Assembly (NCBI GenBank): GCA_029553955.1 | Contig: JAKPJZ010000201.1 | Location: 1 to 64,000, forward strand | From: Chloroflexota bacterium | GTDB lineage: Bacteria; Chloroflexota; Anaerolineae; SpSt-313 | Length of the DNA: 64,000 bases | Reading direction: 5' to 3' | Shown: positions 7,140 to 63,500 of the stretch, in pieces | Numbering within the stretch: the stretch's first letter is position 1 | Layout: the number at the start of each line of letters is the position of its first letter | Notes under the pieces: model-generated | Seen by the model: the letters and a program-made list of their open reading frames with translations, nothing else | What the model was told of the DNA's origin: nothing | Database searches by the model: none | Translations under genes and position numbers: made by a program

Positions 7140-7353
7140 TCTTCCGCAGGTCTGCAAGGAGGTTTGACCGGGTGAAGGCTTTGCGCCATCCCGGTACGGT
7201 ACCTTGAGGGGGGAAGCGGGTTTGCCTGAGCCAGGCGCCGTTCGCCGCCCGCGGGCGGCGAACGGCGCCTGGCTCAGGCAAACCCGCTTCCCCCCTGGGT
7301 CTGATCCGGGAGGTGGCGGAGCAGGTGCCCCGGACCCTACCCAGGCCGTCTGG
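7140..7353 (-). repeat. Palindrome-core intergenic element (copy at pth-mfd), with 90-bp perfect palindrome 7207-7296
   Basis: Positions 7207-7296 form a perfect 90-bp palindrome with no loop and axis CCCGCGGG. Read on the minus strand, the sequence ahead of it (7353-7297) contains CTCCGCCACCTCCCGGATC. The sequence after it (7206-7150) contains CCGTACCGGGATGGCGC and ACCCGGT. Both flanks match the element family described at 35215-35412. The copy at 33927-34055 shares most of the arm sequence, but here each arm carries an extra 7 bp (AGGCGCC and its complement) at mirror positions. No T-run follows. No tRNA or known riboswitch could be recognised. Confidence 0.8.
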
Positions 7354-7431
7354 CCTTGCGCTCTGCTGCCACATGCGAGAAGACGGACCAGTCCAGGGTA
7401 TGGCTGGTCGTGATTATTGGGAGGCCTTTCT

Positions 7432-10400
7432 ATGCAATTGTCTGGGCTGGTGCCCTTGATTGAGGCGCTGCCGGGGGTGCGGCGCCTGAGTAAGGACTTG
7501 GATCAAGGCTCGCTCGCCGCGCTGCGGGGCGCGGCCTTGGGCGTGCCCGAGGCGGCGCGGGCGGCGGTGGTGGCGGCCCTGGTGCGCCATTGGCAAGGCC
7601 CGGTGCTATGGGTGACGGCGGGGCCCGAACGCGCGCGCCTGGCGCACGACGAGCTGGGGCTGTGGACGGGCGAGCCACGGCGCGTGCAGCACTTTCCGGC
7701 GCCGGAAGCGCTCTTCTACGATCGCACGCCCTGGGAGCCGGAGACGGTGCGCCAGCGCGTGGCCGTTCTGGCGCAGCTTGCCGGGGCGCTGGAAGAGGAG
7801 GCCGCGCCCATCATCGTGGCGCCGGCTTGGGCGTTGATGGTGCGCACGGTGCCGGCGGCGCTGCTCAAGGGCGGCATTCGCGCCCTGAAGGTGGGGCAGT
7901 TCCGGCCCCCGGCCGAGCTGGCGGCGGCCTGGCTGCGCTTTGGCTACCAGCCGGTGAGCGTCGTCGAGGAGCCGGGCTCGTTCAGCATGCGCGGCGGCAT
8001 TGTCGACGTCTACCCGCCCAACCTGCCGCAGCCAGTGCGCCTCGAGTTCTTTGGCGATGAGATCGACAGCCTGCGCGCCTTCGACCCGGCCACGCAGCGC
8101 TCGGGGCAGGCGCTCGATGCGGTGCAGGTGGTGCCGGCGAGCGAGGCCTTTATGAGCCAGGGGCCGCGTGCCGCGAGCGCCCTGCGCCAGGGCGGCTGGC
8201 GCGACCTCGTGCCCGCCCACGGCCAGCGCCTGGAGCGCGACGTGGAGCGGCTCGAGCGGGGCGAGGCCTTCCTGGGTATGGAGTATTACCTGCCCTACCT
8301 CTACCCGCAGCCGGCCACGCTGCTCGACTATGTCGATGGCCAGGCGCTGGTGATCGCCGATGACCTGCTGGCCATCAAGGCCGAGGCGCAGGCGCTGGAG
8401 GGCCAGGCGGCCGACCTGCGGGCCGAGCTGCAGTGCGAACGGGAGTTGCCGGTCACCTGGCCGGTGCCCTACCTGGCATGGGGCGAACTCGCCGAGCGCC
8501 TGGCGGCCAAGGGGGCGCTGAGCCTGGCCTACGATGCCGCGCCGGAGGAGCTGCTGCTGGCCGAAGAGGAGAGCTTTCAGCCGGGCCTGCGCTACGGCGG
8601 CCGTATGAAGCAGGCGCTCGACGACGTGCGCCGCGTGCTCGAGGCCGGCGGCCGGGCGGTGCTGGTCAGCCGGCAGACGGCGCGTCTGCGCGAGCTGCTC
8701 GCCGAGCTCAACCTCAGCGTGTACCCGCGGGAGGCGATCATCGCCGTGCCGCCGGCCGGCTCGCTGACGATGGTGCAGGGGTCGCTCTCGGAGGGCTGGG
8801 CATTGGCCGGCGAGCGGCTGGCCGTGCTCACCGACGCCGAGCTGTATGGCTGGCGGCGCTCACAGCCCCGGCGGCAGCGGCGAGCGCGCGCCCTGGCGCC
8901 CGAGGCCTTCTTCGCCGATCTGCGCGAGGGCGAGTATGTGGTGCACATGGACCACGGCGTCGGCATCTACCGCGGCCTGGTGCGCAAGACCGCGGGCGAT
9001 ACGGAGCGCGAATACCTCGAGGTCGAGTACCAGGGCGGCGACCGGCTGTTCGTGCCGGCGCAACAGGTCGACCGGCTCACGCGCTACGTCGGCGGCGAAG
9101 CGCACGAGGTGACGTTGCAACGGCTGGGCACCGCCGACTGGGCGCAGATCAAAGCGCGCACGCGGCGCGCGGTGGAGGATATCGCCCGCGACCTGCTCGA
9201 GCTCTATGCGACGCGTGAGGTCGTGCCCGGCCATGCCTTCGCCTCCGACAACCAGTGGCAGCTCGAGCTGGAGGAGTCATTCCCCTACGACGAGACACGC
9301 GACCAACTGCAGGCGCTGTCCGAGGTCAAGGGCGATATGGAAAAGCCCAAGCCGATGGATCGCCTGATCTGCGGCGATGTGGGCTATGGCAAGACCGAAG
9401 TGGCCCTGCGCGCGGCGTTCAAGGCGGTGATGGACGGGCGGCAGGTGGCGGTGCTCGTGCCGACGACGGTGCTCGCCCAGCAGCACTATTACACGTTCGA
9501 GGAGCGCCTGCGTGCCTTCCCGGTGAAGGTGGAGATGCTCTCCCGCTTCCGCACCCACCAGGAGCAGAAGGGCATCCTGGAAGAACTGGAGGCGGGCACG
9601 ATCGACATCATCATCGGCACGCACCGGCTCATCCAGCGCGACGTCAAGTTTGGGAACCTGGGCCTGCTCATCGTCGACGAGGAGCAGCGCTTTGGCGTGG
9701 GCCACAAGGAGCGGCTCAAGCGCCTGCGTCGCGAGGTCGATGTGCTCACCCTCAGCGCCACGCCCATCCCGCGGACGCTGTACATGGCGCTGACCGGCGT
9801 GCGCGATATGAGCACCATCAATACACCGCCGGAGGACCGCCTGCCCATCCGCACCCAGGTGGTGGAGTATGACGAAGGGCTGGTGCGCAAGGCTATCCTG
9901 CGCGAGCTGGACCGGGGCGGCCAGGTGTTCTTTGTGCACAACCGCGTGCAGGGCATCTACCAGATGACGCAGCAACTGCAAAGGCTGGTGCCCGAGGCCA
10001 GCTTTTGCGTGGGTCACGGCCAGATGGACGAGGGCGAGCTGGCGCGGGTGATGCTCGACTTTGCGGCGGGCAGGTACGATGTGCTCGTCTGCACGACGAT
10101 CATCGAGAGCGGCCTCGACATTCCCAACGTCAACACGATCATCATCAATCGGGCCGATCGCTTTGGCCTGGCGCAGCTCTACCAACTGCGCGGACGCGTG
10201 GGGCGTAGTGCGAACCGCGCCTATGCCTACCTGCTCTACAACCGGCACCAGCAGCTCACGCCGGTGGCCGGGCGGCGGCTCGAGGCGCTGCTCGAAGCCG
10301 CCGAGCTGGGCGCGGGCTTTCAGATCGCCATGCGCGACCTGGAGATCCGCGGCGCCGGCGAGATGCTGGGGCCCGAGCAGCACGGGCATATCGTGGCGGT

Positions 10401-10947
10401 GGGCTTTGACCTCTACTGCCGCATGCTGGCCCAGGCGATCAAACGGCTGAAGGCGGCGGTGGACAGCGGCCAGGCCGCGGAGCCGGCAGCGCTCACGGCG
10501 GCGGAGGGCGGCGTGGTGGTGGACCTGCCGCTCTCGGCGCACCTGCCCGAGAGCTATGTGGCCGATACGGCCCTGCGCCTGCGGCTCTATCGCCGCCTGG
10601 CCGAGGTGGGCCAGCCCGAGGAGGTGGAGGCGCTGCAGCAGGAGCTGGCCGAGCGCTTTGGCCCGCTACCTGCAGCGGTGCAGAACCTGCTCTACCTGCT
10701 GCGGCTGAAGGTGCTGGCGACGCGGGCCGGGGTGGCGGCCGTGGCGACGGAGGGCCACGACGTGGTACTGCGCTTCCCGGACCTGTTGCCGCCCGCGGTG
10801 ATCCAACAGGCGCACCGTTTCGGTAGCCGGGTGGCCGTCGGCCGCAACCGGCTCGCCATTGCTCGCGAGGAGCGCTGGCGCGAGCTGCTGGTGGCGCTGC
10901 TCATCGTGCTGGCCCAGCGGGTCGGCGCCGAGGCCGTCGCGGCGTAG
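7432..10947 (+). CDS. mfd: Transcription-repair coupling factor
   Basis: The 1171-residue protein removes RNA polymerase stalled at DNA lesions and recruits the UvrABC repair machinery. An N-terminal UvrB-like region (about 1-350) is followed by the CarD-like RNA-polymerase-interacting domain (EYVVHMDHGVGIYRG, near 502). The translocase has Walker A GDVGYGKTEVALRAAF (near 645) and the DEEQ box LLIVDEEQRFGVGHKE. Motif VI is LYQLRGRVGRSANRAYAY, and a C-terminal TRCF domain closes the protein. The frame opens five codons earlier, but the ATG at 7432 has GGGAGG at a proper distance and is preferred. Length is normal for the family and no motif is missing. Confidence 0.97.
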   Translation: MQLSGLVPLIEALPGVRRLSKDLDQGSLAALRGAALGVPEAARAAVVAALVRHWQGPVLWVTAGPERARLAHDELGLWTGEPRRVQHFPAPEALFYDRTPWEPETVRQRVAVLAQLAGALEEEAAPIIVAPAWALMVRTVPAALLKGGIRALKVGQFRPPAELAAAWLRFGYQPVSVVEEPGSFSMRGGIVDVYPPNLPQPVRLEFFGDEIDSLRAFDPATQRSGQALDAVQVVPASEAFMSQGPRAASALRQGGWRDLVPAHGQRLERDVERLERGEAFLGMEYYLPYLYPQPATLLDYVDGQALVIADDLLAIKAEAQALEGQAADLRAELQCERELPVTWPVPYLAWGELAERLAAKGALSLAYDAAPEELLLAEEESFQPGLRYGGRMKQALDDVRRVLEAGGRAVLVSRQTARLRELLAELNLSVYPREAIIAVPPAGSLTMVQGSLSEGWALAGERLAVLTDAELYGWRRSQPRRQRRARALAPEAFFADLREGEYVVHMDHGVGIYRGLVRKTAGDTEREYLEVEYQGGDRLFVPAQQVDRLTRYVGGEAHEVTLQRLGTADWAQIKARTRRAVEDIARDLLELYATREVVPGHAFASDNQWQLELEESFPYDETRDQLQALSEVKGDMEKPKPMDRLICGDVGYGKTEVALRAAFKAVMDGRQVAVLVPTTVLAQQHYYTFEERLRAFPVKVEMLSRFRTHQEQKGILEELEAGTIDIIIGTHRLIQRDVKFGNLGLLIVDEEQRFGVGHKERLKRLRREVDVLTLSATPIPRTLYMALTGVRDMSTINTPPEDRLPIRTQVVEYDEGLVRKAILRELDRGGQVFFVHNRVQGIYQMTQQLQRLVPEASFCVGHGQMDEGELARVMLDFAAGRYDVLVCTTIIESGLDIPNVNTIIINRADRFGLAQLYQLRGRVGRSANRAYAYLLYNRHQQLTPVAGRRLEALLEAAELGAGFQIAMRDLEIRGAGEMLGPEQHGHIVAVGFDLYCRMLAQAIKRLKAAVDSGQAAEPAALTAAEGGVVVDLPLSAHLPESYVADTALRLRLYRRLAEVGQPEEVEALQQELAERFGPLPAAVQNLLYLLRLKVLATRAGVAAVATEGHDVVLRFPDLLPPAVIQQAHRFGSRVAVGRNRLAIAREERWRELLVALLIVLAQRVGAEAVAA

Positions 10948-10956
10948 CGAGCTTGT

Positions 10957-11114
10957 TCCCTCTCCCCCGAGGGGGAGAGGGTTAGGGTGAGGGGGAACTC
11001 CGGGGTCTGGCGAGCGCCGGGATGTGCTCGAAGTGGCTTGCCGGCGAGCGGGATTGGCCGCTGACACGGCGTTTCACCCTCACCCCCGCCCTCTCCCTGA
11101 GGGAGAGGGTGAAG
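10957..11114. repeat. ccctctccc REP-like repeats, left pair
   Basis: Two copies of a repeat built on CCTCTCCC and GGGAGAGG arms plus the tail TTAGGGTGAGGGGG lie in opposite orientation at 10957-10996 and 11072-11114. Related sequences at 11551-11663 lie on the other side of the DUF559 gene. The repeats separate mfd from that gene and could also form hairpins at the 3' ends of both converging transcripts. Confidence 0.85.
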
Positions 11115-11125
11115 CTGTCGCCCGC

Positions 11126-11509: not shown

Positions 11510-11550
11510 TATGGCCGTCCTCCTTCGAAAGGCTCGCCATGGCGAAGAAG

Positions 11551-15237: not shown

Positions 15238-16251
15238 TCACAACCCCACGCCGTCGATCTTGGTGCCGCAGTACGCGCACGCGCCGTCCTTCAGGTGGCG
15301 CTCGGTGACGGCAAAGCCGTAACGCCCGATCACCGTGCGCCCGCAGCCGGGGCAGGAGGTATCCTCACCGCGTAGGCCGGGCAGGTTGCCGATGTAGACG
15401 TAGCGCAGGCCGGCCTCGCGGCCGATGTCGTGGGCGCGTTGCAGCGTGGCGGCCGGCGTCGGCGGCGCATCGGTGAGGCGGTAGGCCGGGTGGAAGCGGC
15501 TGATATGCCAGGGCGTGCCCACGCCCAGCTCGCGGGCGATAAAGCCGGCCAGGTCGGCGAGTTCCGCGGGGTCATCGTTGTGGCCGGGAATGATCAGCGT
15601 GGTGACCTCGAGCCAGATGCCCTGCCGGCGCATCAGCGTGAGGGCATCGAGCACCGGCTGCAGCCGCGCGTCGCACAGCCGTCGGTAGAACTCGTCGCGG
15701 AACGATTTGAGATCGACGTTGGCGGCGTCGAGGTAGGGATGGTAGGCCTCGAGCATCTCGGGCGTCATGTAGCCGTTGGTGACAAAGATGTTGGCCACGC
15801 GCTCGCGCCGCGCCAGGAGGGAGACGTCGTAGACATATTCGAAGGCGATGGCGGGCTCGGTGTAGGTGTAGGCGATGCTGCGGCAGCCATAGTGGCCGGC
15901 CGCGGCGACGATGGCCTCGGGCGCGAGCCGGTGGCCCTCGATGCTCTGCAGGTCGCGCGGCATCTGCGAGATTTCCGCGTTCTGGCAAAAGCTGCAGCGC
16001 AGGTTGCAGCCCGCGCTGGCGATGGAGAAGGCGCTCGAGCCGGGGTGGAAGTGAAAGAGCGGCTTTTTCTCGATGGGGTCGATGGCGCGCGCGATGAGCT
16101 CGCCGTAGATGAGCGAGTGAAGCGTGCCGGCGCGGTTCTCGCGCACGCCGCACACGCCGCGCCGGCCCGGCTGGATGGTGCAGCGGTGGGCGCACAGCCG
16201 GCACTGCACGGCCTGGCTGTCGAGCTTGTCGTAGAGACGCGCTTCTTGCAT
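15238..16251 (-). CDS. amrS: AmmeMemoRadiSam system radical SAM enzyme
   Basis: The 337-residue protein is a radical-SAM enzyme related to pyruvate formate-lyase activators. The 4Fe-4S cluster motif is CNLRCSFCQN near residue 80. An N-terminal Cys-rich stretch (CRLCAHRCTIQPGRRGVCGV) and a C-terminal zinc-ribbon-like pair (CPGCG, CAYCG) fit AmrS. The AmrS family is named for co-occurrence with MEMO1 and AMMECR1 homologues; neither is in this window. I chose the ATG at 16251 because AAGGAG lies 6 nt upstream. That ribosome binding site can pair with CTCCT just before it (loop AAGA), and a 76-bp palindrome abuts this hairpin, so translation may be regulated. Confidence 0.9.
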   Translation of the reverse strand: MQEARLYDKLDSQAVQCRLCAHRCTIQPGRRGVCGVRENRAGTLHSLIYGELIARAIDPIEKKPLFHFHPGSSAFSIASAGCNLRCSFCQNAEISQMPRDLQSIEGHRLAPEAIVAAAGHYGCRSIAYTYTEPAIAFEYVYDVSLLARRERVANIFVTNGYMTPEMLEAYHPYLDAANVDLKSFRDEFYRRLCDARLQPVLDALTLMRRQGIWLEVTTLIIPGHNDDPAELADLAGFIARELGVGTPWHISRFHPAYRLTDAPPTPAATLQRAHDIGREAGLRYVYIGNLPGLRGEDTSCPGCGRTVIGRYGFAVTERHLKDGACAYCGTKIDGVGL

Positions 16252-16257
16252 GCATGA

Positions 16258-16375
16258 CTCCTTCTTAGGAGGGGTTTTGGCGGGTTTGGGTGCACCTGCC
16301 CCCGCCGCGGCGGGGGCAGGTGCACCCAAACCCGCCAAAACCCCTTTCAGGGCAAGAGCCGGGTGGGCGCGAAGC
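16258..16375 (-). repeat. Palindrome-core intergenic element upstream of amrS, with 76-bp perfect palindrome 16270-16345
   Basis: 16270-16345 is a perfect palindrome with axis CCGCGG and outer arms GGGGTTTTGGCGGGTTTGGG. On the minus strand it is preceded by GCGCCCACCCGGCTCTTGCC, matching the leading flank of the element at 35215-35412. It is followed by CCTAAGAAGGAGTC, which contains the amrS ribosome binding site in the place where other copies carry CTTAAGG. Confidence 0.8.
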
Positions 16376-20466: not shown

Positions 20467-20499
20467 GCCTGCCTCCTGGGGTTCAGCATGACTGGCAGC

Positions 20500-20690
20500 C
20501 TGTCGGAGCTAACTCGCCACTCTGAGCATCCTGGCAACAGCCGGGCAGTCTGCTCCGCTGCCACCGGGCTCTGGCCCAGGAGCGGGTTCGGGGGTGGCCC
20601 TGCCGGCCGCCCCTGGCGCGCCAGGGCCACCCCCGAACCCGCCTTAAGGTTTCCGAACCGTGTTCGCGCGCGACGTCAAACCCGGTGGCC
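20500..20690 (+). repeat. Palindrome-core intergenic element (copy 20.5 kb)
   Basis: The leading flank GCTCCGCTGCCACCGGGCTC (20549-20568) is followed by an inverted repeat with 20-bp arms (20582-20601 and 20623-20642). Its centre holds CCTGGCGCGCCAGG plus an insertion. The trailing flank CTTAAGG, GAACCGTGTTCGCGCG and AAACCCGGTGGCCGG closes it. Same order as at 35215-35412. The rest of the 458-bp gap contains a separate 13-bp-arm hairpin (20751-20782, ACCGTAGTAACGA) and the promoter of the next gene. Confidence 0.75.
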
Positions 20691-20750
20691 GGCCAGGATT
20701 GGTCTATTCCGATGGGCTGCTAGGCGCAATACCTTTCAAATGGGGTGGCC

Positions 20751-21750: not shown

Positions 21751-21804
21751 GGGGGTTAGGAGTGCGTTTGCTGCCCGCGGGCGGCAGACCCACTCCTAAC
21801 ACCC
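21751..21804. repeat. Imperfect palindrome with CCCGCGGG axis
   Basis: A 54-bp inverted repeat with five mismatched positions, starting GGGGGTTAGGAGTG and centred on CCCGCGGG (21774-21781). It lies 8 bp after the IolB-like stop codon and 22 bp before the next ATG. It appears to be a decayed relative of the perfect palindromes at 7207 and 33927. Confidence 0.75.
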
Positions 21805-21825: not shown

Positions 21826-22899
21826 ATGGATGCCACTGAGCAGCTCCTGAAGGAGCTCACCGAGGCGCCCGGGCTGCCGGGCTATGAAGGCGAGGCGCGG
21901 GCGGTCATGCGCCGCGCGCTGGAGGGCACGGCGGCCGAGATTACGCAGGACGGCCTGGGCAGCCTCATCGCCACGCTGCCGGGCAGCGCCGAGCGGCCGC
22001 GCATCATGCTGGCCGGGCACCTGGATGAGGTCGGCTTTATCGTCCGGTTCATCACCGAGAACGGCTTTATCCGCTTCCTGCCGCTGGGCGGCTGGTGGGA
22101 TCAGGTGCTGCTCGCGCACCAGGTGGTCATCAAGACGCGCAAGGGCGATGTGGTGGGCGTGATCGGCGCCAAGCCGCCGCACATGCTGAAGGAAGAGGAG
22201 CGCAACAAGGTCGTCGAGAAGGACGCCATGTACATCGACGTCGGCGCCAGCAGCCGGGCGCAGGTGGAGGAGCTGGGCGTACGTGTCGGCGACCCTATCG
22301 TGCCGCGCACCGAGTTCACCGTGCTGGCCGGCGGCACGACCTACCTCTCGAAGGCGTGGGATAACCGCGTGGGCTGCGCCCTGGTCGTGGCGGCGTTCCG
22401 CGCCCTCAAGGGCCGGCCGCATGCCAACACGCTCTACGGCGTGGGCACGGTGCAGGAAGAGGTGGGCCTGCGCGGCGCCCGCACCAGTGCCCATGCCGTG
22501 GACCCCGACGTGGGCCTGGTGATGGAGGTGGCCATCGCGGGCGACCTGCCCGATATGAAGCCCGAGGAGGGCGCGACCAGGCTGGGTGGCGGCGTGTCGC
22601 TGTTGGCGTACGACGGCAGCATGATCCCCAACCTGAAGCTGCGCGACTTGGCGATCGACACGGCGCAAGCGGCCGGCATCCCCTACCAGATCGACCTCAT
22701 GCCCCGCGGCGGCACCGATGGCGGGCCGATCCATCAGAACCGTAGCGGCGTGCCTGGGCTGGTCATCGGCGTGCCGACGCGGCACATCCATAGCCACCAG
22801 GGCATCATCAGCCGCGACGATTTCGATGCGGCGGTGCGGCTGGTGGTGGCGCTGATCGAGCGCCTCGACGCCACGACGGTGGCCGGCCTGACACCGTAA
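21826..22899 (+). CDS. M42 family metallopeptidase (glutamyl/deblocking aminopeptidase type)
   Basis: The 357-residue enzyme is a dinuclear metal aminopeptidase of the TET-forming M42 family. Metal and catalytic residues are visible in AGHLDEVGFIV, WDNRVGCAL, VQEEVGLRGA, PRGGTDGGPIHQ and PTRHIHSHQG, in the correct order. These enzymes trim N-terminal residues from peptides in the cytoplasm. AAGGAGGA precedes the ATG at 21826. The stop codon TAA (22897-22899) forms the first three bases of the palindrome that separates it from the convergent gene. Confidence 0.93.
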   Translation: MDATEQLLKELTEAPGLPGYEGEARAVMRRALEGTAAEITQDGLGSLIATLPGSAERPRIMLAGHLDEVGFIVRFITENGFIRFLPLGGWWDQVLLAHQVVIKTRKGDVVGVIGAKPPHMLKEEERNKVVEKDAMYIDVGASSRAQVEELGVRVGDPIVPRTEFTVLAGGTTYLSKAWDNRVGCALVVAAFRALKGRPHANTLYGVGTVQEEVGLRGARTSAHAVDPDVGLVMEVAIAGDLPDMKPEEGATRLGGGVSLLAYDGSMIPNLKLRDLAIDTAQAAGIPYQIDLMPRGGTDGGPIHQNRSGVPGLVIGVPTRHIHSHQGIISRDDFDAAVRLVVALIERLDATTVAGLTP

Positions 22900-22990
22900 T
22901 CGGAAGGGTGGGGTTGTGGACGGGCGATGCCGTTGGCCTCCCGCGGGTGGCCAACGGCATCGCCCGTCCACAACCCCACCCTTCCGATTA
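22897..22990. terminator. 94-bp palindrome spanning both convergent stop codons
   Basis: The arms 22897-22938 and 22949-22990 are exact complements (42 bp); the centre adds CCCGCGGG with one mismatched pair. The first three bases are the TAA of the M42 peptidase gene on the plus strand. The last three are the TAA of the DUF1786 gene on the minus strand. No T-run follows either arm. It probably acts as a shared 3' hairpin protecting or terminating both transcripts. Confidence 0.85.
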
Positions 22991-24046
22991 CCACAACCCC
23001 TCGCCCGCTCCATAGTGCTGGCGCGTGGCTGCGACGAGCCCGAAGCAGCCGGCGAGCATCATGTTGCCGTAGGGCGCGGCCAGGTAGTAGCCGAGGCCCG
23101 CGGCGAGCGCGCGGCGCGGGCCGGTGACGGCGACGAGAGGCGTCTCGCTCCATGGGCGATACGCCGGGTCGATGGCGGCGCCGTGGCCGTTGCCGGCGCG
23201 CACGGCTTCGTCGCTGAGCGTGCCTTGCACCAGCCCCTGCACCAGCGACTGCAGCGCCTCACGGTCAACCAGCACCGTATGGTGCTCGAAGAGGCCCCAG
23301 ATGCGTGTGCCCCGCACCAGTGCCCCCAGGATGTGCTGATTGCCGATGTTGAGCGCGACCAGGCCCGCCTCGCGCTGCCCGGCGACCTGTGGGTCGCACA
23401 AGGCCCCCCAGATAGCCGCCGCGGCCGTGTCCATGAGAATGGCGCCGGGGCAGGCTCGTTGGATGGCCAACATGCGCGTGAGCTGGGGCGGCGGCGTGGG
23501 GTAGAGCAGGCGCGCCAGCTCGCCGCCCGCGGCAAGGAAATCGCGCCACAGGCCAAAGCGCAGCACGCGGTTACGGCCGCTGAGGCACTCGCCGTGGTCC
23601 TGGACGGCAACGGCGACGGTCGCAGGCAGCGCCACGTCGTAGGGCGCAAGGGCCGCGCGCAGGCGCTGGAGGTCCACGTCGCCGGTGGTGATGGCGGCCG
23701 CCGCAGGTTCGGGGCTGTGCTCGACGATCTGCACGCCCAGGCGGCGCACCTCGTCGAGGTTGTCGCGCACGGTGAGCGCGGCCCGGGGCGTGGCGTAGGC
23801 GGGCAGCCCGGCGCGGATGTGGCGCTTGAGGGCGCTGGCACAGGCGCCGCCGCCCATAAGCGCGCCGCTCAAGTAGACCGCCTGCCCGGCCGCCGTGGCC
23901 TGGCGGATGCGCCCGGCGACGATCACGGTGGGCGCGGGGAGGACGAGCTGCACACAGTCCTCCACGGGCTGCGCGGCATCGTAGAGTAGGATGTCTTGGG
24001 TGCCGCCGCCAATGTCGACGGCGAGGATGCGGGTGGTATCGACCAT
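22988..24046 (-). CDS. DUF1786 family protein
   Basis: The 352-residue protein matches DUF1786, sometimes labelled as a pyruvate-formate-lyase-activating protein although it is not a radical-SAM enzyme. The N-terminus ILAVDIGGGTQDILLYD resembles the phosphate-1 loop of the actin/Hsp70/sugar-kinase ATPase fold. Further conserved parts are YLSGALMGGGACASALKRHI near 57, AVQDHGECLSGRNRVLRFG near 148 and a C-terminal GNMMLAGCFGLV. An ATPase or nucleotide-binding role is inferred from the fold. It converges with the M42 peptidase gene across a palindrome. Confidence 0.8.
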   Translation of the reverse strand: MVDTTRILAVDIGGGTQDILLYDAAQPVEDCVQLVLPAPTVIVAGRIRQATAAGQAVYLSGALMGGGACASALKRHIRAGLPAYATPRAALTVRDNLDEVRRLGVQIVEHSPEPAAAAITTGDVDLQRLRAALAPYDVALPATVAVAVQDHGECLSGRNRVLRFGLWRDFLAAGGELARLLYPTPPPQLTRMLAIQRACPGAILMDTAAAAIWGALCDPQVAGQREAGLVALNIGNQHILGALVRGTRIWGLFEHHTVLVDREALQSLVQGLVQGTLSDEAVRAGNGHGAAIDPAYRPWSETPLVAVTGPRRALAAGLGYYLAAPYGNMMLAGCFGLVAATRQHYGAGEGLW

Positions 24047-27055: not shown

Positions 27056-27084
27056 AGCATACTCTCAAGCAGAGGGTGTGTCAA
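27056..27084 (-). promoter_or_regulatory. Promoter of obgE
   Basis: On the minus strand TTGACA (27084-27079) and TATGCT (27061-27056) are separated by 17 bp, 30 bp ahead of the ATG at 27026. The array of tandem repeats starts 18 bp further upstream. Confidence 0.7.
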
Positions 27085-27101
27085 GGTGTGTGTTCGGCGG
27101 G

Positions 27102-27404
27102 CCTACCCGGCAAGAGCCCGCGACCGGCTACGGCGCTTCGCATGCCCCCGGTACGGATCCCCTTTGTGGGGTTTAGGCGGGCCGGTCTGCGCGTCCGGCG
27201 GCCCTACCCGGCAAGAGCCCGCGACCGGCTACGGCGCTTCGCATGCCCCCGGTACGGATCCCCTTTGTGGGGTTTAGGCGGGCCGGTCTGCGCGTCCGGC
27301 GGGCCTACCCGGCAAGAGCCCGCGACCGGCTACGGCGCTTCGCATGCCCCCGGTACGGATCCCCTTTGTGGGGTTTAGGCGGGCCGGTCTGCGCGTCCGG
27401 CGGC
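27102..27404. repeat. Three tandem copies of a 101-bp unit
   Basis: Units begin CCTACCCGGCAAGAGCCCGC at 27102, 27203 and 27304, an exact 101-bp period with very few differences. Each unit, read on the minus strand, contains CCGTACCGGGGGCATGCGAA, which resembles the trailing flank of the palindrome-core element. Each ends with GGGGTTTAGGCGGGCCGG, the outer arm of the palindrome at 27366. The array is thus an amplified half-element. Open frames through it are repeat artefacts. Confidence 0.9.
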
Positions 27405-27451
27405 CCCGCGGGGCCGCCGGACGCGCAGACCGGCCCGCCTAAACCCCACAA
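27366..27451. repeat. 86-bp perfect palindrome closing the 101-bp array
   Basis: Perfect two-fold symmetry about CCCCGCGGGG (27404-27413), no loop. Its left arm is the end of the third tandem unit; the right arm exists only here. It stops 16 bp before the stop codon of the UroD-family gene. Confidence 0.9.
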
Positions 27452-32173: not shown

Positions 32174-33928
32174 ATGTTGCAGGAACTGAGCATCAGCAAC
32201 TTTGCCATCATCGACCATCTGCGCCTTGGCTTTGCGCCGGGGATGAACGTCCTCACCGGCGAGACCGGCGCGGGCAAGTCGATCATCATCGACGCCGTCA
32301 GCGCGCTCTTGGGGGGGCGCCTCTCGGGCGAGACGGTAATCCGCGCCGGCGCCGAGCGGGCCACGATCGAGGGCATTTTCGGCCTCACCCCTGCCGGGGC
32401 GACATCTCTCCAGCCGCTGGTCGACGAGCTCGGGCTCGACGACGGCGACGGGACGCTGATCCTCAGCCGCGAGCTCAACCGCTCGGGGCGCAACGTCTGC
32501 CGCGTCAACGGGCGGGCGGTCACCGTGAGCGTGCTCGAGCAGTTCGGGCAGCGCCTGGTCGACATCCACGGTCAGGGCGAGCACCTCTCGCTCTTGCGCG
32601 TGCGCGAGCACCTGGGCTTCCTCGACCGCTACGCCGGGCTTGCCGAGGCGCGGGCGACGCTGGCGACCACGTTTGCCGAGCTGCGCCGGGTGCGTCAGGC
32701 CCTGCAGGAATGCCTGCGCGACGAGCGCGAGCTGGCACGGCGCATGGACCTCTTGCAGTTCCAGGTGGCCGAGATCGACGCAGCCAAGCTCGACGCTGAG
32801 GAGGAGGAGCAGCTCCTGCAGCAGCGCACGCTGCTGGCCAATGCCGAGCGCTTGCAAGAGCTGGCCAACTCGGGCTATGCGCTCCTGAGCGGGGGCGAGC
32901 AGCACCGCCGCTCGGCGCTCGACCTCTTGGGCACGGTGCTGCACGACCTGGCGCAGCTCGAAAAGCTGGACCCGACCGTGGCCGAGCAGCGGCAGGCGGC
33001 GGAGAATGCCCTGTACCAGCTCGAAGACGTGGCGCGCGCTTTGCGTGTGTACCGCGACGGCATCGAGTTCAGCCCCGCGCGCCTCGAGCAGGTGGAGGAA
33101 CGGCTGTCGCTGCTGCAGAGCCTGAAGCGCAAGTACGGCGAGACGGTGGCCGACGTGCTGCGCTTTGGCGAGAGCGCGCGCGCCGAGCTCGAAGCCATCA
33201 GCCACAACGAGGAACGGGTGGCCGAGCTGCGCGAGCGCGAGCAGGCGCTGCTGGGCGAGGCCGGCGCGCAGGCCGCGCAGCTCTCGGTGGCGCGCCGCGA
33301 GGCCGCCGGCCGGCTGGAGCGCGCGGTGGAAGAGCAGCTTGCCGAGCTCAAGATGGAACGGGCGCGCTTTGTGGTGGCTATCGAGCGGGCGGAGGACGCC
33401 ACAGGCCCCGAGATCGACGGTCGGCGCTGGGCGCTCGATGCCACCGGGGTCGATCGCGTCGAGTTCCTCATTGCGCCGAACCTGGGCGAGCCGCCCAAGC
33501 CCTTGGCCAAGATCGCCTCGGGCGGCGAGACGTCGCGCCTGATGCTGGCGATGAAGGGCGTGCTCTCGCAGGCCGATGCCGTGCCCACGCTGATCTTTGA
33601 CGAGATCGACGCCGGCATCAGCGGCCGCGTGGGCACGCTGGTGGGGCGCAGGCTGTGGGGCCTCACCGGCAGCCACCAGGTGCTGTGTGTGACGCACCTG
33701 CCGCAGATCGCCAGCTTTGCCGATTGCCATCTGAATGTGAGCAAGGAGATTGCCGGCGAGCGCACCGTCACCCACGTGCGCCGGCTCGCCGCCGCCGAGC
33801 GCGCCCATGAGCTGGCCGGCATGCTGGGCGGCGATGGCACGAGCGCCTCGCTCCTGAACGCGGAGGAGCTGTTGGCGCAGGTCGAGGGTTGGAAGCAGCA
33901 GGAGCGACAGCCACAACAAGGGGCATGA
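32174..33928 (+). CDS. recN: DNA repair protein RecN
   Basis: The 584-residue SMC-like ATPase acts in double-strand break repair. Walker A is LTGETGAGKSIIIDAVSALL (near 31), followed by two long coiled-coil arms (about 160-235 and 290-380). The ABC signature is KIASGGETSRLMLAMKGVL near 446 and Walker B is PTLIFDEIDAGISGRVG near 472. Length and motif order are normal. ATG at 32174. The stop codon TGA overlaps the first two bases of a 64-bp palindrome. Confidence 0.96.
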   Translation: MLQELSISNFAIIDHLRLGFAPGMNVLTGETGAGKSIIIDAVSALLGGRLSGETVIRAGAERATIEGIFGLTPAGATSLQPLVDELGLDDGDGTLILSRELNRSGRNVCRVNGRAVTVSVLEQFGQRLVDIHGQGEHLSLLRVREHLGFLDRYAGLAEARATLATTFAELRRVRQALQECLRDERELARRMDLLQFQVAEIDAAKLDAEEEEQLLQQRTLLANAERLQELANSGYALLSGGEQHRRSALDLLGTVLHDLAQLEKLDPTVAEQRQAAENALYQLEDVARALRVYRDGIEFSPARLEQVEERLSLLQSLKRKYGETVADVLRFGESARAELEAISHNEERVAELREREQALLGEAGAQAAQLSVARREAAGRLERAVEEQLAELKMERARFVVAIERAEDATGPEIDGRRWALDATGVDRVEFLIAPNLGEPPKPLAKIASGGETSRLMLAMKGVLSQADAVPTLIFDEIDAGISGRVGTLVGRRLWGLTGSHQVLCVTHLPQIASFADCHLNVSKEIAGERTVTHVRRLAAAERAHELAGMLGGDGTSASLLNAEELLAQVEGWKQQERQPQQGA

Positions 33929-34055
33929 GGTAGGTTTGCCTGAGCCGTTCGCCGCCCGCGGGCGGCGAACGGCTCAGGCAAACCTACCTCCGCCCGCCCT
34001 GGGCCTGGTCCGGGAGGCGGCGGAGCAGACGCCCCGGACGCTACCCAGGTCGTAG
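33927..34055 (-). repeat. Palindrome-core element after recN, 64-bp perfect palindrome 33927-33990
   Basis: 33927-33990 is perfectly palindromic about CCCGCGGG. Its arms share GGTTTGCCTGAGCC and GTTCGCCGCCC with the copy at 7207-7296 but lack the 7 bp present on both arms there. The flank 33998-34055 (CCTGGGCCTGGTCCGGGAGG and GCCCCGGACGCTACCCAGG) matches 7294-7353. The other flank is missing because the palindrome abuts the recN stop codon. Confidence 0.85.
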
Positions 34056-35175: not shown

Positions 35176-35214
35176 CGGCCTGCTGGAGGATCAACTCGTC
35201 GCTGTCGGCGGCCC

Positions 35215-35412
35215 GGGCGCAGCCGGGCCTTTGGCTCCGCTGCGCCCGGCTCTGATCCAGGAAGGGGTTTGGGCGGGTTGGGCCTTCCGGCTGCCCCTGG
35301 CGCGCCCGCGGACGCGCCAGGGGCAGCCGGAAGGCCCAACCCGCCCAAACCCCGCCATGATGGCCTCGAACCGGGCTCGCGCAGAGCGTGAAACCCGGTT
35401 GCCGGGCGGTTC
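35215..35412 (+). repeat. Palindrome-core intergenic element, best-preserved copy, 90-bp palindrome 35264-35353
   Basis: Three parts are clear. The leading flank contains GGCTCCGCTGCGCCCGGCTC and TGATCCAGGAAGG. The 90-bp palindrome has outer arms GGGGTTTGGGCGGGTTGGG and one mismatch near the axis CCCGCGGA. The trailing flank contains GAACCGGGCTCGCGCAGAGC and GTGAAACCCGGTTGCCGG. The surrounding gap, 35176-35508, holds no gene. Copies of this order occur at 7140, 16258, 20500, 38930 and 63380. Confidence 0.85.
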
Positions 35413-35508
35413 CGATCCGCTCGACACGCTGCTCGCATCTGGGTCATCGTTGTCGTGTCGTCTCTGGCCTCGGGCGCCGCTTGGCGCGTTCCAAAGGAGG
35501 GTAAACCC

Positions 35509-36434: not shown

Positions 36435-36489
36435 GGGGGTATTCGGCGGGATGGGCGGCCACAGGCCGCCCATCCCGCCGAATACCCCC
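36435..36489. terminator. Hairpin between convergent genes
   Basis: Perfect 26-bp arms (36435-36460 and 36464-36489) with a 3-nt loop ACA, beginning GGGGGTATTCGGCGGGATGG. It sits 12 bp after the PAP2 stop and 33 bp before the stop of the opposing gene, so it can serve both. The outer arm resembles that of the palindrome-core elements. Confidence 0.8.
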
Positions 36490-37733: not shown

Positions 37734-38293
37734 GTCCTACCTCCTCAGCCAAAAAAGCGACTGCAACAGCAGCCAATTTCGCCCCATCCGGGTGACTGCC
37801 TGGCGGTATGCTCCGCACCAGCCCGGCTTCGATCTTTCGGGGGAAACCTGACACACCGATTTCCATGGCGGGCAGGCGATTGGCAATAACCAGCCAGACG
37901 CCTGCCCATACCCACGGGCGGGCCCCCCTACCGTTCCCCCGTCGCGGGGGAATTGGGCTGTCTTCCGCGGCACTAGATCGCTCGCTTGCCGTTTCTTGGC
38001 CACACAGGACGCGGTCGAGCGCCCCCATTCCCCCGCGACGGGGGAACGGTAGGGGGGCCCCCACCCTGCAGCAGGAGAAACCGTCTGTCAGTCGTGGCGC
38101 GAGCTGGACCGAGTGCTTGCCAGAAAGCCGGCGCTGGCCACCCGCCAGGGAAATTGCTGTGACAGGTCTCCGAAAACCTGTCAGGTTTCGTCGCGGGCGG
38201 CCAGGGCGCAGCCGGCCCGCCAAACACTCCCCCCAATCAGGGCTCCGTTCCGGCCGCGCGTGCGAAGCGTGAGGCCCGGATGACGCGGCCCTC
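37734..38293. other. Intergenic region with a MITE-like element and an element remnant
   Basis: 37845-38168 is the second MITE-like copy. 38160-38190 is a gacctgtcagg-type palindrome. 38193-38285 (GGCGCAGCCGGCCCGCC, then GTTCCGGCCGCGCGTGCGAA and GTGAGGCCCGGATG) resembles the palindrome-core element without its long palindrome. No gene is visible. Confidence 0.65.
37845..38168. mobile_element. MITE-like element, copy 2 (324 bp, internally expanded)
   Basis: Termini (37845-37872 and 38141-38168) match those of 15000-15230: AACCTGACACACCGATTTCC and, read inward from the right, GACCTGTCACAGCAATTTCC. The hairpin in the middle differs from copy 1. Each 30-bp arm (37923-37952 and 38028-38057) now contains the whole copy-1 hairpin tip, and 75 bp of new sequence separates them. 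No coding capacity. Confidence 0.85.
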
Positions 38294-38929: not shown

Positions 38930-39130
38930 CTTGTTGCGGGCAACCGCTGGCGGTCCGGGTGGCTGCCGGCTGACCCGCTGCGCTTCGGCCCGGCGCTGGC
39001 CCGGAAGGGGAATTCTCGGCGGGGTGGCTGCCCCATGGCCGCCCGCGGGCGGCCATGGGGCAGCCAACCCGCCGAGAATTCCCCCCTTAAGATTCCGTTT
39101 CGGTCATGTGCGAAGCTCAACGCCCGGATG
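38930..39130 (+). repeat. Palindrome-core element between sigma and anti-sigma genes, 78-bp palindrome 39007-39084
   Basis: The leading flank contains GCTGCGCTTCGGCCCGGCGC and CCGGAA. The palindrome is symmetric about CCCGCGGG with one mismatch (39024/39067). The trailing flank contains CTTAAG, CGGTCATGTGCGAAGCTCAA and GCCCGGATGCCGCG. It lies in the leader of the anti-sigma gene. Confidence 0.8.
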
Positions 39131-39144
39131 CCGCGCCCCTTCGT

Positions 39145-58485: not shown

Positions 58486-58592
58486 CCGCCGCATGCCGCC
58501 GAGAATGGCGAGGGAAGGAGGTGCAAGGGAGCCAAGACCGCGCTTGGGCACCGACGCTAGCCATCCATCATACCCCATAAGGAGGTGTACCT

Positions 58593-60188: not shown

Positions 60189-60213
60189 GGCTCTCGATGC
60201 TGTCGGGGGGTTC

Positions 60214-60269
60214 AGGCAGGATGGGTTGCAGCGCCGGGTCGCCCAGCTCCGCAACCCGTCCTACCTGCC
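60214..60269 (+). terminator. Imperfect hairpin between the two transporter genes
   Basis: GGCAGGATGGGTTGC (60215-60229) pairs with the GCAACCCGTCCTACCTGCC region (60251-60269) with bulges. It lies about 26 bp after the APC gene stop. There is no T-run; partial termination or mRNA stabilisation is likely. Confidence 0.5.
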
Positions 60270-60402
60270 CCTCCGGATGAACCGCCTTGGCCTTTCGAAA
60301 CGAGCCTGTGCAGGCGCAGAGCGAGACCCAGGCGCAGCGACTGCGCCTGCTAGCCGGCAGCAGAATGCCCGCCAAGCAGACATCGTCAAATGAAGGATCC
60401 TC

Positions 60403-61632
60403 ATGCCCGAATGGCATCGTACGCTCTACACGATCTGGTTCACGCAGTTCATTGCACTTCTGGGTTTCTACTTTGTGGTCCCGTTCATCCCCTGCTACGT
60501 CCAACAATTGGGCATCAGCGATCCCAGAGAGGTGGTCCTGTGGGCAGGGATTGCGACGTCGGCCAACCCTATCGCCATGGCCGTGATGTCGCCGGTGTGG
60601 GGCGTGCTGTCGGACCGCTACGGCTACAAGATCATGGTCGTGCGTGCCAGCTTTGCGGGCGCGATTATCCTTGCCCTCATGGGTCTTGTCACGAATGTGC
60701 AGCAACTGATTGTGCTCCGGCTTGCGCAAGGTGCATTCTCGGGCACCATTGCGGCCACGACGACCCTGGTGGCCAGCACCACGCCCAAGGAGCATTCGGG
60801 GATGGCGCTGGGTTCGCTGCAGACGGCCGTCTTCCTGGGCACGTCGCTGGGTCCACTGCTCGGGGGCCTGGTGGGCGATAACCTTGGCTACCGACCCAGC
60901 TTCTGGATCACCGGGGCCTTGCTGCTGCTTTCCGGCCTGCTGGTGGTGTTCCTGGTGCCCAAGGACCCCTCGCCAACTGACGCCACAGCACGCACGCGGC
61001 GAGCGCGCTCGTGGGCTGATCTGAAGGTTCTGCTCGGCTCGGGGGCTGCACTGCTCCCCCTGCTCATCGCGCGGACTCTGTACCGGGCTGCCATGCAAGT
61101 GCCCAATCCGGCGCTGCCGCTCTTCGTACAGGCGAACATGCCGCCGGGCACGCACGTGGCGACTGTGACAGGGCTGATTACCGGCGCTTTTGCCGTCGGC
61201 TCGGCTGCCGGCTCACCGCTGGCGGGCAACTGGGGCGACCGGCTGGGATACCGCCGGCTGCTCCTCTTCGCAGGGCTGGCGGCCGGTCTCTTCTACCTGC
61301 CTCAGGCCTTTGTCCGCCTTCCGGGCTGGCTTCTGGTCTGGCAACTGCTGGCCGGGCTCGCCATCGGTGGGGCGCTGGCCGTCCTCGTAGCCATGCTGGC
61401 GCATGCCACGCCAAAGGGCTATGAAGGTGCGGTCTTTGGGCTCGACGCCAGCGCCATGGGGGTGGCCAACGCCATCGGGCCGATGCTGGGGGCCAGTGCG
61501 GCAGCAGCCTTTGGGTTGCAGATCCCCTTCGCACTCGCGGCCGCCACGTGCGTCATCAGTACACTGTTGTTGATGGTTCAGGTCGGCGCGGCGGACCTTC
61601 TTGCGCCAGTGCTGAAGCGAAGGGCACCCTGA
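60403..61632 (+). CDS. Major facilitator superfamily transporter (MdtG-like)
   Basis: The 409-residue protein has twelve predicted helices. The loop 2-3 motif A is present as GVLSDRYGYKIMVV near 67 and its counterpart in the second half as LAGNWGDRLGYRRLLLF near 274. The sequence resembles the MdtG-like efflux branch. It is the last gene of the cluster and may export a toxic intermediate or unrelated compound. ATG at 60403. No terminator is evident before gatB, which converges on it. Confidence 0.87.
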   Translation: MPEWHRTLYTIWFTQFIALLGFYFVVPFIPCYVQQLGISDPREVVLWAGIATSANPIAMAVMSPVWGVLSDRYGYKIMVVRASFAGAIILALMGLVTNVQQLIVLRLAQGAFSGTIAATTTLVASTTPKEHSGMALGSLQTAVFLGTSLGPLLGGLVGDNLGYRPSFWITGALLLLSGLLVVFLVPKDPSPTDATARTRRARSWADLKVLLGSGAALLPLLIARTLYRAAMQVPNPALPLFVQANMPPGTHVATVTGLITGAFAVGSAAGSPLAGNWGDRLGYRRLLLFAGLAAGLFYLPQAFVRLPGWLLVWQLLAGLAIGGALAVLVAMLAHATPKGYEGAVFGLDASAMGVANAIGPMLGASAAAAFGLQIPFALAAATCVISTLLLMVQVGAADLLAPVLKRRAP

Positions 61633-61826
61633 TCTGCGCGATGGGCCTGGCTCCGCCGCGTGCTCGCGCAATCGGCAACGCGACGAGCCGGCCTCCGGGA
61701 GCCTGCTACGGTTCGGTGCTGCGGATCGTGGTTGCTTGGGCCATATGGTCGATAGCCAGGGCGCGGGCGGCGATGCGCATCGCAACCTTCAGGCGCATCA
61801 TGGTCGCGTGGTGCTGAGCAGCCAAA

Positions 61827-63269
61827 TCAGGATCTTTCGCCACGGCGCCGCTCGAGCGCCTGCTGCAGCACTTCTTGAGCGAGCTGAGGGTTCGCCTGGC
61901 CGCGGGTGGCGCGCATCACCTGGCCGAAGAGGAAGCGCAGGATGGCCTCCTTGCCCGCCAGGTACTCGGCCACCGGGCCGGGGTTCTCGCTGAGCACGCG
62001 GGCCACGACGCCTTCGAGCAGGCTGCGGTCCGAGATTTGCGCCAGGCCGCGTGCCTGGGCGATCTCGGCGGGTGGCTCGCCGGTAGCCCACATCTCGGCG
62101 AGCACCTGCTTGCCGCTGGCGGCGGTGAGCCGGCCCGAAGCGATCAGGCGCAGCAGGGCTACGAGGCCGGCCGGCGTGATGCGGCTCTCTTCGATGGGCC
62201 GCTCTTCGGCGCGCAGCAGGCGAAAGAGCTCGCCGCTCATCCAGTTGGCGATGGTCTTGGCGTCGACGCCGCCCTCGGCCACGGCAGCCTCAAAGTACTC
62301 GGCCACCGGACGCTCGGCGGTCAGCACGCCGGCATCGTAGGCCGAGAGGCCATAGTCGCGCTGGTAGCGGTCGGCCTTGGCGCCGGGCAGCTCCGGCAGT
62401 TGGGCGCGCAGCCCCTCAACCCAGGCGCGCTCGAGCACCAGCGGCGGCAGGTCGGGCTCGGGGAAGTAGCGGTAGTCGTGTGCCTCTTCCTTGGTGCGCT
62501 GCTCGAAGGTGGCCTCGCGCGTTTCGTCCCACCCCATGGTGACCTGCGCCACTCGCCCGCCCGACTCGAGCACGCGCGTCTGCCGCGCGATCTCGTACTC
62601 GAGGCTGCGCAGCACGGCGCGGAAGCTGTTGAGGTTCTTGATCTCTACCTTGGTGCCGCGCTCGCCTTCGCGCGCCACTGAGACGTTGACCTCCAGCCGC
62701 AGGGCGCCTTTTTCCATGTCGCCCGAGTTGACGCCCAGGTAGCGCAGGATGGAGCGCAGCCGGGTCACATACTCGTAGGCTTCCTCGGGCGTGTGCATAT
62801 CGGGCTCGCTGACGATCTCCATCAGCGGTACGCCGGCGCGGTTGAAATCGACCAGGGTGCAGCCCTCGGCGTGGGTGAGCTTGGCCGTGTCCTCTTCGAG
62901 GTGCACGCGGCGGATGGCGATGCGCCGCCGCGCCCCCTTCACTTCGATTTCGAGGCCGCCGTCAGAGCACAGCGGATGGTCGTACTGTGAGATCTGGTAG
63001 CCCTTGGGCAGGTCGGGGTAGGGATAGTTCTTGCGGTCGAACCAGCTCACCTCGGCGATGCGGCAGCCGAGCGCCAGGCCGGTGAGCACCGTGCCGGCCA
63101 CGGCCTGGGCGTTGATGACCGGCAACGCCCCCGGCAGCCCCAGGTCGACAGGGCAGACGAGGGTGTTGGGCGGCGCCGCGGCATAGTCGGCGCGGCAGGC
63201 GCAGAACATCTTGGAGGCGGTCTGCAGTTGGGCGTGCACTTCGATGCCGATTGTGGCGTGGTAGGGCAT
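61827..63269 (-). CDS. gatB: Aspartyl/glutamyl-tRNA amidotransferase subunit B
   Basis: The 480-residue protein is the B subunit of GatCAB, which makes Gln-tRNA(Gln) or Asn-tRNA(Asn) by transamidation. N-terminal [39 protein letters not shown], the kinase-like core ([17 protein letters not shown] near 145) and the C-terminal YqeY-like domain (about 330-480, [19 protein letters not shown]) are all present. I chose the ATG at 63269 because GGAGT lies five bases upstream; four extra codons are possible. A strong promoter lies at 63305-63334. gatA and gatC are not in the window. Confidence 0.95.
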
Positions 63270-63304
63270 GGGCGACTCCATACGAGCAGCATTTGGCTGA
63301 TTTC

Positions 63305-63334
63305 ATTATAGCCCGTAGCGAGAAGCGCTGTCAA
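63305..63334 (-). promoter_or_regulatory. Promoter of gatB
   Basis: On the minus strand TTGACA (63334-63329), 18-bp spacer and TATAAT (63310-63305), 36 bp before the gatB ATG. Confidence 0.85.
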
Positions 63335-63379
63335 TCGCGCAGGCACAGGGGGTTTGTCTCATCATCGTTGGTGATCGGC

Positions 63380-63500
63380 TCTTGGGCTTCGCACGAGCCC
63401 GGTGCGGGCCTTTCGCGCAGGGGTTTGGCGGGGCGGCTGGCGTTGCTGGCCGCCCCGCCAAACCCCTGCCTCCGGTCAGAGCCGGGCGCACGAGGGCATG
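63380..63500 (-). repeat. Palindrome-core intergenic element, 53-bp palindrome 63417-63469
   Basis: On the minus strand the leading flank reads GCCCGGCTCTGACCGGAGG. It is followed by an inverted repeat with perfect 20-bp arms (63417-63436, 63450-63469), outer arm GCAGGGGTTTGGCGGGGC. The trailing flank contains GCACCGGGCTCGTGCGAAGC. Order and flanks match the copy at 35215-35412. It sits between the divergent gatB and glyA promoters. Confidence 0.8.

What the first reader, a model, noticed from the sequence alone, without database searches (positions are those of the whole stretch)
7140..63500. A dispersed family of intergenic elements with conserved flanks and long palindromic cores whose inner arms vary
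At least six intergenic sites (7140, 16258, 20500, 35215, 38930, 63380), partial ones (27102, 32085, 33927, 38193) and probable relatives (900, 21751, 22897, 36435) share one plan. A leading flank resembles GGCTCCGCTGCGCCCGGCTC plus TGATCCAGGAAGG. Then comes a palindrome whose outer arm starts GGGGTTTGGGCGGG-like, and then a trailing flank like GAACCGGGCTCGCGCAGAGC plus AAACCCGGT. Inner arms differ from copy to copy, yet stay perfectly or almost perfectly symmetric (perfect at 7207-7296, 16270-16345, 27366-27451, 33927-33990). Most have the axis CCCGCGGG. Known REP or ERIC repeats have conserved stems; here the flanks are conserved and the stems vary while symmetry is kept. Either the RNA structure is selected regardless of sequence, or a process keeps rewriting one arm from the other.
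Basis: partly seen in the sequence, partly recalled or inferred. Interest (0 to 1): 0.85.

Follow-up and report, generated by a model that had tools for sequence, protein, structure and literature searches.

The report
Self-mirroring DNA hairpins in Anaerolineae
An uncultured Chloroflexota bacterium carries roughly 800 long hairpin-forming palindromes whose sequence changes from copy to copy while the two halves stay mirror images, best explained by DNA copying that keeps rewriting one half from the other, a mutation process known from laboratory assays but here acting across a genome.

Summary
The window holds about a dozen long, almost perfect palindromes (shuffled sequence never exceeds arms of 13). 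In an unselected 266 kb of the same draft genome there are 38, about 770 genome-wide. Arms are typically 35-50 bp and about 99.5% symmetric. 1.2 Mb of recN-anchored loci from other bacteria has none this long.

There are two classes. Class 1 sits inside a MITE: hairpin A, palindrome, hairpin B, with terminal inverted repeats; 8-bp target duplications are visible in the sister genus. Class 2 sits at gene ends, sometimes filling the gap between two convergent stop codons.

Between close copies 207 arm differences are mirrored and 18 are not. In a 14-copy alignment 18 pairs changed on both sides, none on one side, with no G-U pair. MITE ends and flanking hairpins in the same elements have decayed, so symmetry is renewed in place. 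Template-switch scars are present: a flank overwritten by the opposite flank with a 7-nt shared junction, and a non-palindromic repeat turned into a perfect palindrome.

Best explanation: quasipalindrome correction by replication template switching. Selection for RNA structure alone fits poorly. Mechanism and elements are known kinds; the scale in a bacterium is new. Function is unproven; long reads are needed.

The parts
7140..7345 (+). class 1 element: hairpin A (about 7166-7196), palindrome 7207-7296 (arms 45/45), hairpin B (about 7303-7345)
16270..16345 (.). perfect palindrome, arms 38/38, in the gap between two minus-strand genes, 19 bp upstream of the called start of 15238-16251; B-like flank on the right
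20493..20722 (-). MITE-like element: TIR-like ends (3 and 5 mismatches), B hairpin, shorter hairpin core 20582-20642 (arm 21, loop 19), A hairpin
21751..21804 (.). decayed palindrome (87% complementary)
22896..22991 (.). class 2 palindrome, arms 47/48, fills the 88-bp gap between two convergent genes and takes in both stop codons (TAA ... TTA)
27080..27365 (+). three tandem copies (period 101) of hairpin A plus left half arm, the third running into the palindrome; replication-slippage scar
27366..27451 (.). perfect palindrome, arms 43/43
33927..33990 (.). class 2 palindrome, arms 32/32, overlapping the recN stop codon, with a B-like hairpin downstream
35203..35420 (-). class 1 element, B - palindrome 35264-35353 (44/45) - A on the + strand
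36435..36489 (.). palindrome, arms 26/26, loop 3, between convergent genes
38193..38280 (-). half palindrome with hairpin A (other arm lost or replaced)
38940..39135 (-). class 1 element, B - palindrome 39007-39084 (38/39) - A on the + strand
63375..63510 (+). class 1 element with shorter core 63417-63469 (arms 21/21, loop 11)

Best explanation
These are hairpin-forming palindromes, many of them the centre of an old MITE and others at gene ends. Their two arms evolve in concert because replication repeatedly uses one arm as template for the other (quasipalindrome correction by intrastrand or sister-strand template switching). Proposed cycle: a short hairpin forms at a fork; the nascent 3' end folds back at the axis, copies the arm just made, and returns to its template at a microhomology. 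The far arm, and sometimes flanking DNA, becomes an exact mirror copy. Mismatches are thereby erased and arms can be extended. Extension would be limited by coding sequence and by loss of very long palindromes. Occasional slips delete the palindrome, leave half of it, duplicate hairpin plus half arm, or invert the loop. Shown here: symmetry, mirrored differences, decayed ends around intact palindromes, and scars of each kind. Inferred: the polymerase-level mechanism, the rate, and any benefit to the cell (gene-end copies may be used as terminators without a U-tract or as 3' protection).
For: (1) 6000 of 6032 arm positions in 152 palindromes are symmetric. Mismatches cluster in the 4-5 bases next to the axis, i.e. 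the hairpin loop (26/122 at position 2, but about 0.3% from position 6 outwards), so symmetry is enforced where a hairpin stem would form. (2) Nearest-neighbour copies differ at 207 mirrored positions against 18 one-arm positions. In a 14-copy alignment of 47 pairs, 18 pairs changed on both sides, 0 on one side only, and no G-U pair occurs in 658 cells; 0 of 500 shuffles reach these values. (3) The same elements have decayed outside the palindrome: 6-bp stems of A 82% and B 73% paired, terminal repeats about 13% off consensus and no target duplication seen. So symmetry was not just set at insertion. (4) L276:15886-16027 (arm 70/71): the left flank is the outer half of hairpin A joined to a mirror copy of hairpin B, with the join at GCTTCGC shared by A and B. 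(5) L041:5483-5571: the GTCATTGCGAG repeat, a non-palindromic quasi-hairpin in the homologues shown from L050 and L026, is here a perfect 44-bp-arm palindrome carrying the left arm twice. (6) Slippage scars: tandem 'A + half arm' at window 27080-27365, 'B + half arm' x3 in L035, palindrome deletions between short direct repeats in the sister genus, loop TGT/ACA inverted between near-identical copies L168 and L172. (7) Arms run across unique sequence up to both stop codons of convergent genes (window 22896, L039:8656, L044:4898). (8) Template switching is documented to make quasipalindromes perfect in E. coli (PMC7202029) and to create and maintain hairpins (PMC8794818).
Against: No direct view of an event between two strains: the nearest genomes are another genus, and G002's assembly breaks at these palindromes. 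The one orthologous pair found (perfect in G001 L219:4956-5006, about four mismatches in 22 in G002 L232) has no polarity. Reads are not available; bubble collapse during assembly could hide some single mismatches in mid-arm. Outer positions that could not be collapsed show about 0.7-0.8% mismatch rather than 0.2%, still far below copy-to-copy divergence. Most GTCATTGCGAG repeats have not been made perfect (4 of 22 perfect), so correction is not universal. Intra-hairpin mismatch repair could explain single-base symmetry, though not arm extension or the chimeric flank.
Confidence: 0.74

Rival explanations
1. Selection for an RNA hairpin (for example a terminator or mRNA 3'-end stabiliser) keeps the arms complementary; sequence is free, structure is not.
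For: Nearly all lie between genes (6 of 152 inside a called gene; noncoding is 21% of the sample). Convergent gaps have the highest occupancy (27 palindromes for 57 gaps) and class 2 copies sit within a few bases of stop codons.
Against: An RNA stem tolerates G-U pairs and a few mismatches; none is seen in the 14-copy set and transitions are not enriched among the mismatches (18 of 32). Stems of 35-50 bp exceed what termination needs. Only 1 of 49 stop-proximal palindromes has a U-tract. 22 lie in divergent gaps. Selection does not explain a flank overwritten by the opposite flank.
Confidence: 0.12
2. Symmetry is made only when the element inserts (for example by opening and copying a hairpin transposition intermediate), and copies are simply young.
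For: Sister-genus copies have clean 8-bp target duplications and similar palindromes, so some copies are young there.
Against: In the window's genome the terminal repeats and flank hairpins of the same elements are 13-27% decayed and no target duplication is seen while the palindrome is 99.5% symmetric. Palindromes without any MITE flank are as perfect.
Confidence: 0.07
3. Assembly artefact: the assembler made or perfected the symmetry.
For: Draft, MAG-like assembly (272 contigs, 8% contamination). Several contigs end exactly at a palindrome edge or centre, and equal-coverage bubbles could be collapsed.
Against: An inverted-read chimera would mirror the flanks too, but symmetry drops to chance right beyond the arm. 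Copies in different contigs differ in a mirrored way. The same plan is found in two other assemblies. Outer-arm positions that a small-k assembler could not merge are also symmetric. Contig breaks are what true palindromes longer than k would cause.
Confidence: 0.05
4. Arms are kept alike by mismatch or excision repair acting inside extruded hairpins or cruciforms, without template switching.
For: Fits the hairpin-loop pattern of tolerated mismatches and the single-base mirrored changes.
Against: Does not explain arm extension into flanks, the microhomology junction, duplications of hairpin plus half arm, or conversion of an arm with a multi-base indel.
Confidence: 0.1

Closest known systems
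Quasipalindrome-associated template-switch mutation (E. coli, T4, yeast; PMC7202029, PMC3820800, PMC8604942)
   Same: Imperfect inverted repeats become perfect; arms are homogenised; the spacer may invert.
   Different: Known from reporter hot spots and single events; here hundreds of natural 35-50 bp arms are held near 99.5% symmetry.
Template switching that creates and maintains hairpins in RNA genes (PMC8794818)
   Same: Double changes in stems in one step, perfect new stems.
   Different: There the stems are short and functional; here they are long, intergenic, of unknown function and very numerous.
Perfect palindromes in Nematomorpha mitochondrial genes (PMC6649704)
   Same: Nearly all long inverted repeats are perfect; arms diverge between species in concert; the authors also suggest template switching.
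   Different: Mitochondrial, coding and few; here bacterial, intergenic, about 770, mostly 70-100 bp in all, partly MITE-borne.
Volvox organelle palindromic repeats and sponge repetitive hairpin elements (PMC2670323, PMC2800124)
   Same: Dispersed intergenic palindromes; in Volvox 3-5 nt loops and one repeat inserted in another.
   Different: Organelle; in Volvox shorter stems (4-37 nt); thought of as selfish repeats.
Bacterial MITEs (PMC10969869)
   Same: Terminal inverted repeats, 8-bp target duplications in the sister genus, 180-310 bp.
   Different: A central palindrome of 60-100 bp that evolves in mirror fashion; no autonomous partner identified.
REP elements / RAYT (PMC3733652, PMC8266576)
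   Same: Dispersed intergenic palindromes; GTAG-type repeats and three Y1 transposases exist in this genome.
   Different: REP stems are 5-13 bp with a GTAG or CGTC tag; the main class here has 35-50 bp arms, no tag and no RAYT link.

Membership tests
MITE (class 1 elements) | terminal inverted repeats | tested here: met
   GGGTGCATCCAAGATC at both ends of 249-256 bp elements in G001; TAGCAGCCTGTCGGAGAG, partly decayed, in G000, 132 hits against 10 for the reversed control
MITE (class 1 elements) | target site duplication | tested here: met
   8 bp in G001: GTTGCCAA (L174), GGACTGGT (L180), GGGGTATA (L184); not seen in G000
MITE (class 1 elements) | non-autonomous, with an autonomous relative sharing its ends | not tested
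   terminal-repeat positions were listed but no transposase-bearing copy was looked for
MITE (class 1 elements) | presence/absence at orthologous sites | tested here: inconclusive
   element at G001 L219:3751-4009 is missing in G002 C431, but the G002 sequence also diverges just there
Quasipalindrome template-switch product | arms homogenised, differences mirrored | tested here: met
   207 mirrored against 18 one-arm differences; 18 pairs against 0
Quasipalindrome template-switch product | non-palindromic or imperfect relative turned perfect, return at microhomology | tested here: met
   L041:5483; L276:15886 with GCTTCGC junction
Quasipalindrome template-switch product | event rate raised in replication or repair mutants | not testable with these tools
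   uncultured organism
REP / BIME | stem of 5-13 bp with GTAG or CGTC tag | tested here: not met
   arms 24-56 bp in the main sample, mostly starting GGGG or AGGGG; only a few start (TT)GTAGT
REP / BIME | linked to a RAYT (Y1) transposase | tested here: not met
   three Y1_Tnp genes lie among repeats of other families; one has a class 1 element nearby
Intrinsic (Rho-independent) terminator | U-tract after a short stem | tested here: not met
   1 of 49 stop-proximal palindromes has 5 or more T in the next 8 bases
Known RNA family (Rfam) | match above gathering score | tested here: not met
   no match in the window

The most novel reading that the evidence does not exclude
This Anaerolineae family has an unusually active or unchecked palindrome-making process. 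It turns short hairpins between genes into 70-100 bp perfect palindromes, perhaps because its canonical SbcCD hairpin nuclease has been replaced by an archaeal-type Mre11-Rad50-NurA set. Gene ends are thereby sculpted into mirror sequences.
Probability: 0.25. Interest if true: 0.82.

Novelty: new variant of a known kind. Interest (0 to 1): 0.64.

Why it matters
Template-switch correction of palindromes is known mainly from reporter genes and scattered single events. Here one genome offers about 770 records with visible intermediate states and scars, so the rate, tract length, limits and strand bias of the process could be measured from sequence alone. It also bears on method: perfect covariation in a stem is normally read as proof of a selected RNA structure, and these stems show the same signal without any G-U intermediate and with little sign of selection on RNA.

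Tried and rejected
RAYT mobilisation: the three Y1 transposases sit among repeats of other families. Rfam: nothing. Canonical terminator: no U-tract. Loss of SbcCD as sufficient cause: G000, G001, G002 and also G017 lack a canonical SbcD and have only a divergent Mre11-like one, but G017 has no long palindrome in 94 kb, so this is at most permissive. Orthologous gaps between G000 and the sister genus: recN is 75-76% identical and the DNA after recN does not align by eye. G001 against G002: 92-94% identical DNA where syntenic, but G002 contigs break at palindromes, and only one hairpin could be compared, without polarity. No RNA covariance model was built, because direct pair counts answered the question.
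Full report
Setting. The window is 64 kb of a 159,784-bp contig (C37) of a 5.37-Mb draft genome in 272 contigs, 92% complete and 8% contaminated.

The observation. Ten shuffles of the window gave a best arm score of 13; real ones reach 45. A survey of 776 kb of the genome, mostly taken around matches to one element, found 152 palindromes with arm score 24 or more. Arms are mostly 35-50 bp and loops mostly 0-4 nt. Stretches not chosen around matches (266 kb) gave 38, i.e. about 770 for the genome. As controls, 80 recN-anchored loci from other bacteria (1.2 Mb) had no arm score of 28 or more, and 413 kb of seven other genomes of the class had one of 26 or more.

Anatomy. Class 1 elements consist of a hairpin A (ACCGGG...CGCTTCGC...CCCGGT), a short link, the palindrome, and a hairpin B (GCCGGG...GCGGAGC...CCCGGC then CCAGGAT). 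In G001 the same order lies inside a 249-256 bp MITE with terminal repeats GGGTGCATCCAAGATC and, in several copies, 8-bp target duplications; G002 has the same ends. Copies of about 182-192 bp lack all or most of the palindrome, with a junction that looks like slippage between short direct repeats. In the window's genome the MITE ends read TAGCAGCCTGTCGGAGAG and are partly decayed; target duplications are no longer seen. Class 2 palindromes have no A/B flanks and often sit at gene ends. In ten convergent gaps the palindrome nearly fills the space between both stop codons, and in window 22896-22991, L039:8656 and L044:4898 it includes both stops in mirror positions.

Symmetry. Of 6032 arm positions 6000 match; 18 of the 32 mismatches are transition-type and 14 transversion-type. 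Mismatches lie near the axis, where a hairpin has its loop. Just beyond the arm ends symmetry falls to chance. Between close copies 207 differences are mirrored and 18 are not. In 14 copies of one subfamily, 18 of 19 varying pairs show changes on both sides, none varies on one side only, and there is no G-U cell among 658. By contrast the A and B stems of the same elements are only 82% and 73% paired; part of that shortfall may come from imperfect automatic placing of these short stems.

Why a rewriting process. Selection on RNA would allow G-U pairs and mismatches and would not need 35-50 bp; it does not predict mirror copies of neighbouring sequence. Setting symmetry only at insertion fails because the ends of the same elements have decayed. 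Individual scars point to template switching. L276:15886-16027 has arms of 71 in which the left flank is outer A joined to mirrored B at the shared heptamer GCTTCGC; this was read from the aligned flanks by eye, since the automatic A/B labels are not consistent in orientation. L041:5483-5571 is a GTCATTGCGAG repeat whose homologues are not palindromic, now carrying its left arm twice. Window 27080-27365 and L035:3980-4380 show tandem copies of 'flank hairpin plus half arm'. Loop orientation TGT/ACA differs between two near-identical G001 copies. Deletion of palindromes is seen in G001 and G002. A rough inference: if mismatches arise at twice the per-site mutation rate and are removed at rate c, a standing mismatch level of 0.3-0.5% means c is about 400-700 times the per-site mutation rate. 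Whether that needs any special enzyme is not known.

Permissive factor. Sixteen of 21 genomes of the class have a canonical SbcD above cut-off. The window's family (and G017) has only a divergent one. In G000 it lies in a gene cluster resembling archaeal Mre11-Rad50-NurA. G017 has no palindromes in 94 kb, so absence of canonical SbcCD alone does not make them. This link is a correlation in one family only.

Assembly. Several contigs end at palindrome edges or centres, as expected for true palindromes longer than an assembler's k. Bubble collapse might hide mid-arm mismatches. Positions it could not merge still show mirrored changes outnumbering unpaired cells (18 to 3 in my tally of the table, columns 1-20 and 40-47). 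Reads would settle this.

What is known. Template switching that perfects quasipalindromes is described in E. coli (PMC7202029), yeast (PMC3820800, PMC8604942) and RNA-gene stems (PMC8794818). Nematomorph mitochondria hold perfect palindromes with concertedly evolving arms (PMC6649704), and algal and sponge organelles hold dispersed palindromic elements (PMC2670323, PMC2800124). A survey of perfect inverted repeats in 118,019 genomes (PMC13155455) does not mention Chloroflexota in its main text. I found no report of this density of long perfect palindromes in a bacterial chromosome, but the paper library is partial. I therefore call it a new variant of a known kind.

Noticed in passing
L192:4208-10104 (G000:C20, about 32.2-38.1 kb): An archaeal-type Mre11-like, Rad50-like and NurA gene set downstream of proS in a Chloroflexota genome; the three genomes of this family and G017 have no canonical SbcD above cut-off.
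   Followed up: partly
L168 and L172 (G001): Two near-identical MITE copies differ by inversion of the 3-nt hairpin loop (TGT against ACA).
   Followed up: partly
152 palindromes, list: Transition-type arm mismatches are mostly C on the left arm against T on the mirrored right arm (about 11 to 2 by eye) although contig orientation should be random; unexplained.
   Followed up: no
window:40734-41143: Array of CCCGAACAAGTTCGGGAGTCCGG inverted repeats; a similar repeat surrounds a Y1 transposase gene in L058.
   Followed up: no
window:5426-5511, L041:5483, L046:8580 and others: GTCATTGCGAG...CTCGCAATGAC repeat family; 22 copies in 776 kb, 4 of them perfectly symmetric.
   Followed up: partly
L035:4023-4380: Tandem copies of hairpin B plus right half arm after a perfect palindrome.
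   Followed up: partly
L264 and L269 (G000:C50, C110): 38 kb without any long palindrome; these contigs may be binning contaminants (the assembly is rated 8% contaminated).
   Followed up: no
L025:19171-19278: A 108-bp stretch with MITE-like terminal repeats at both ends (5 mismatches each) and no long palindrome between them, perhaps a minimal MITE.
   Followed up: no
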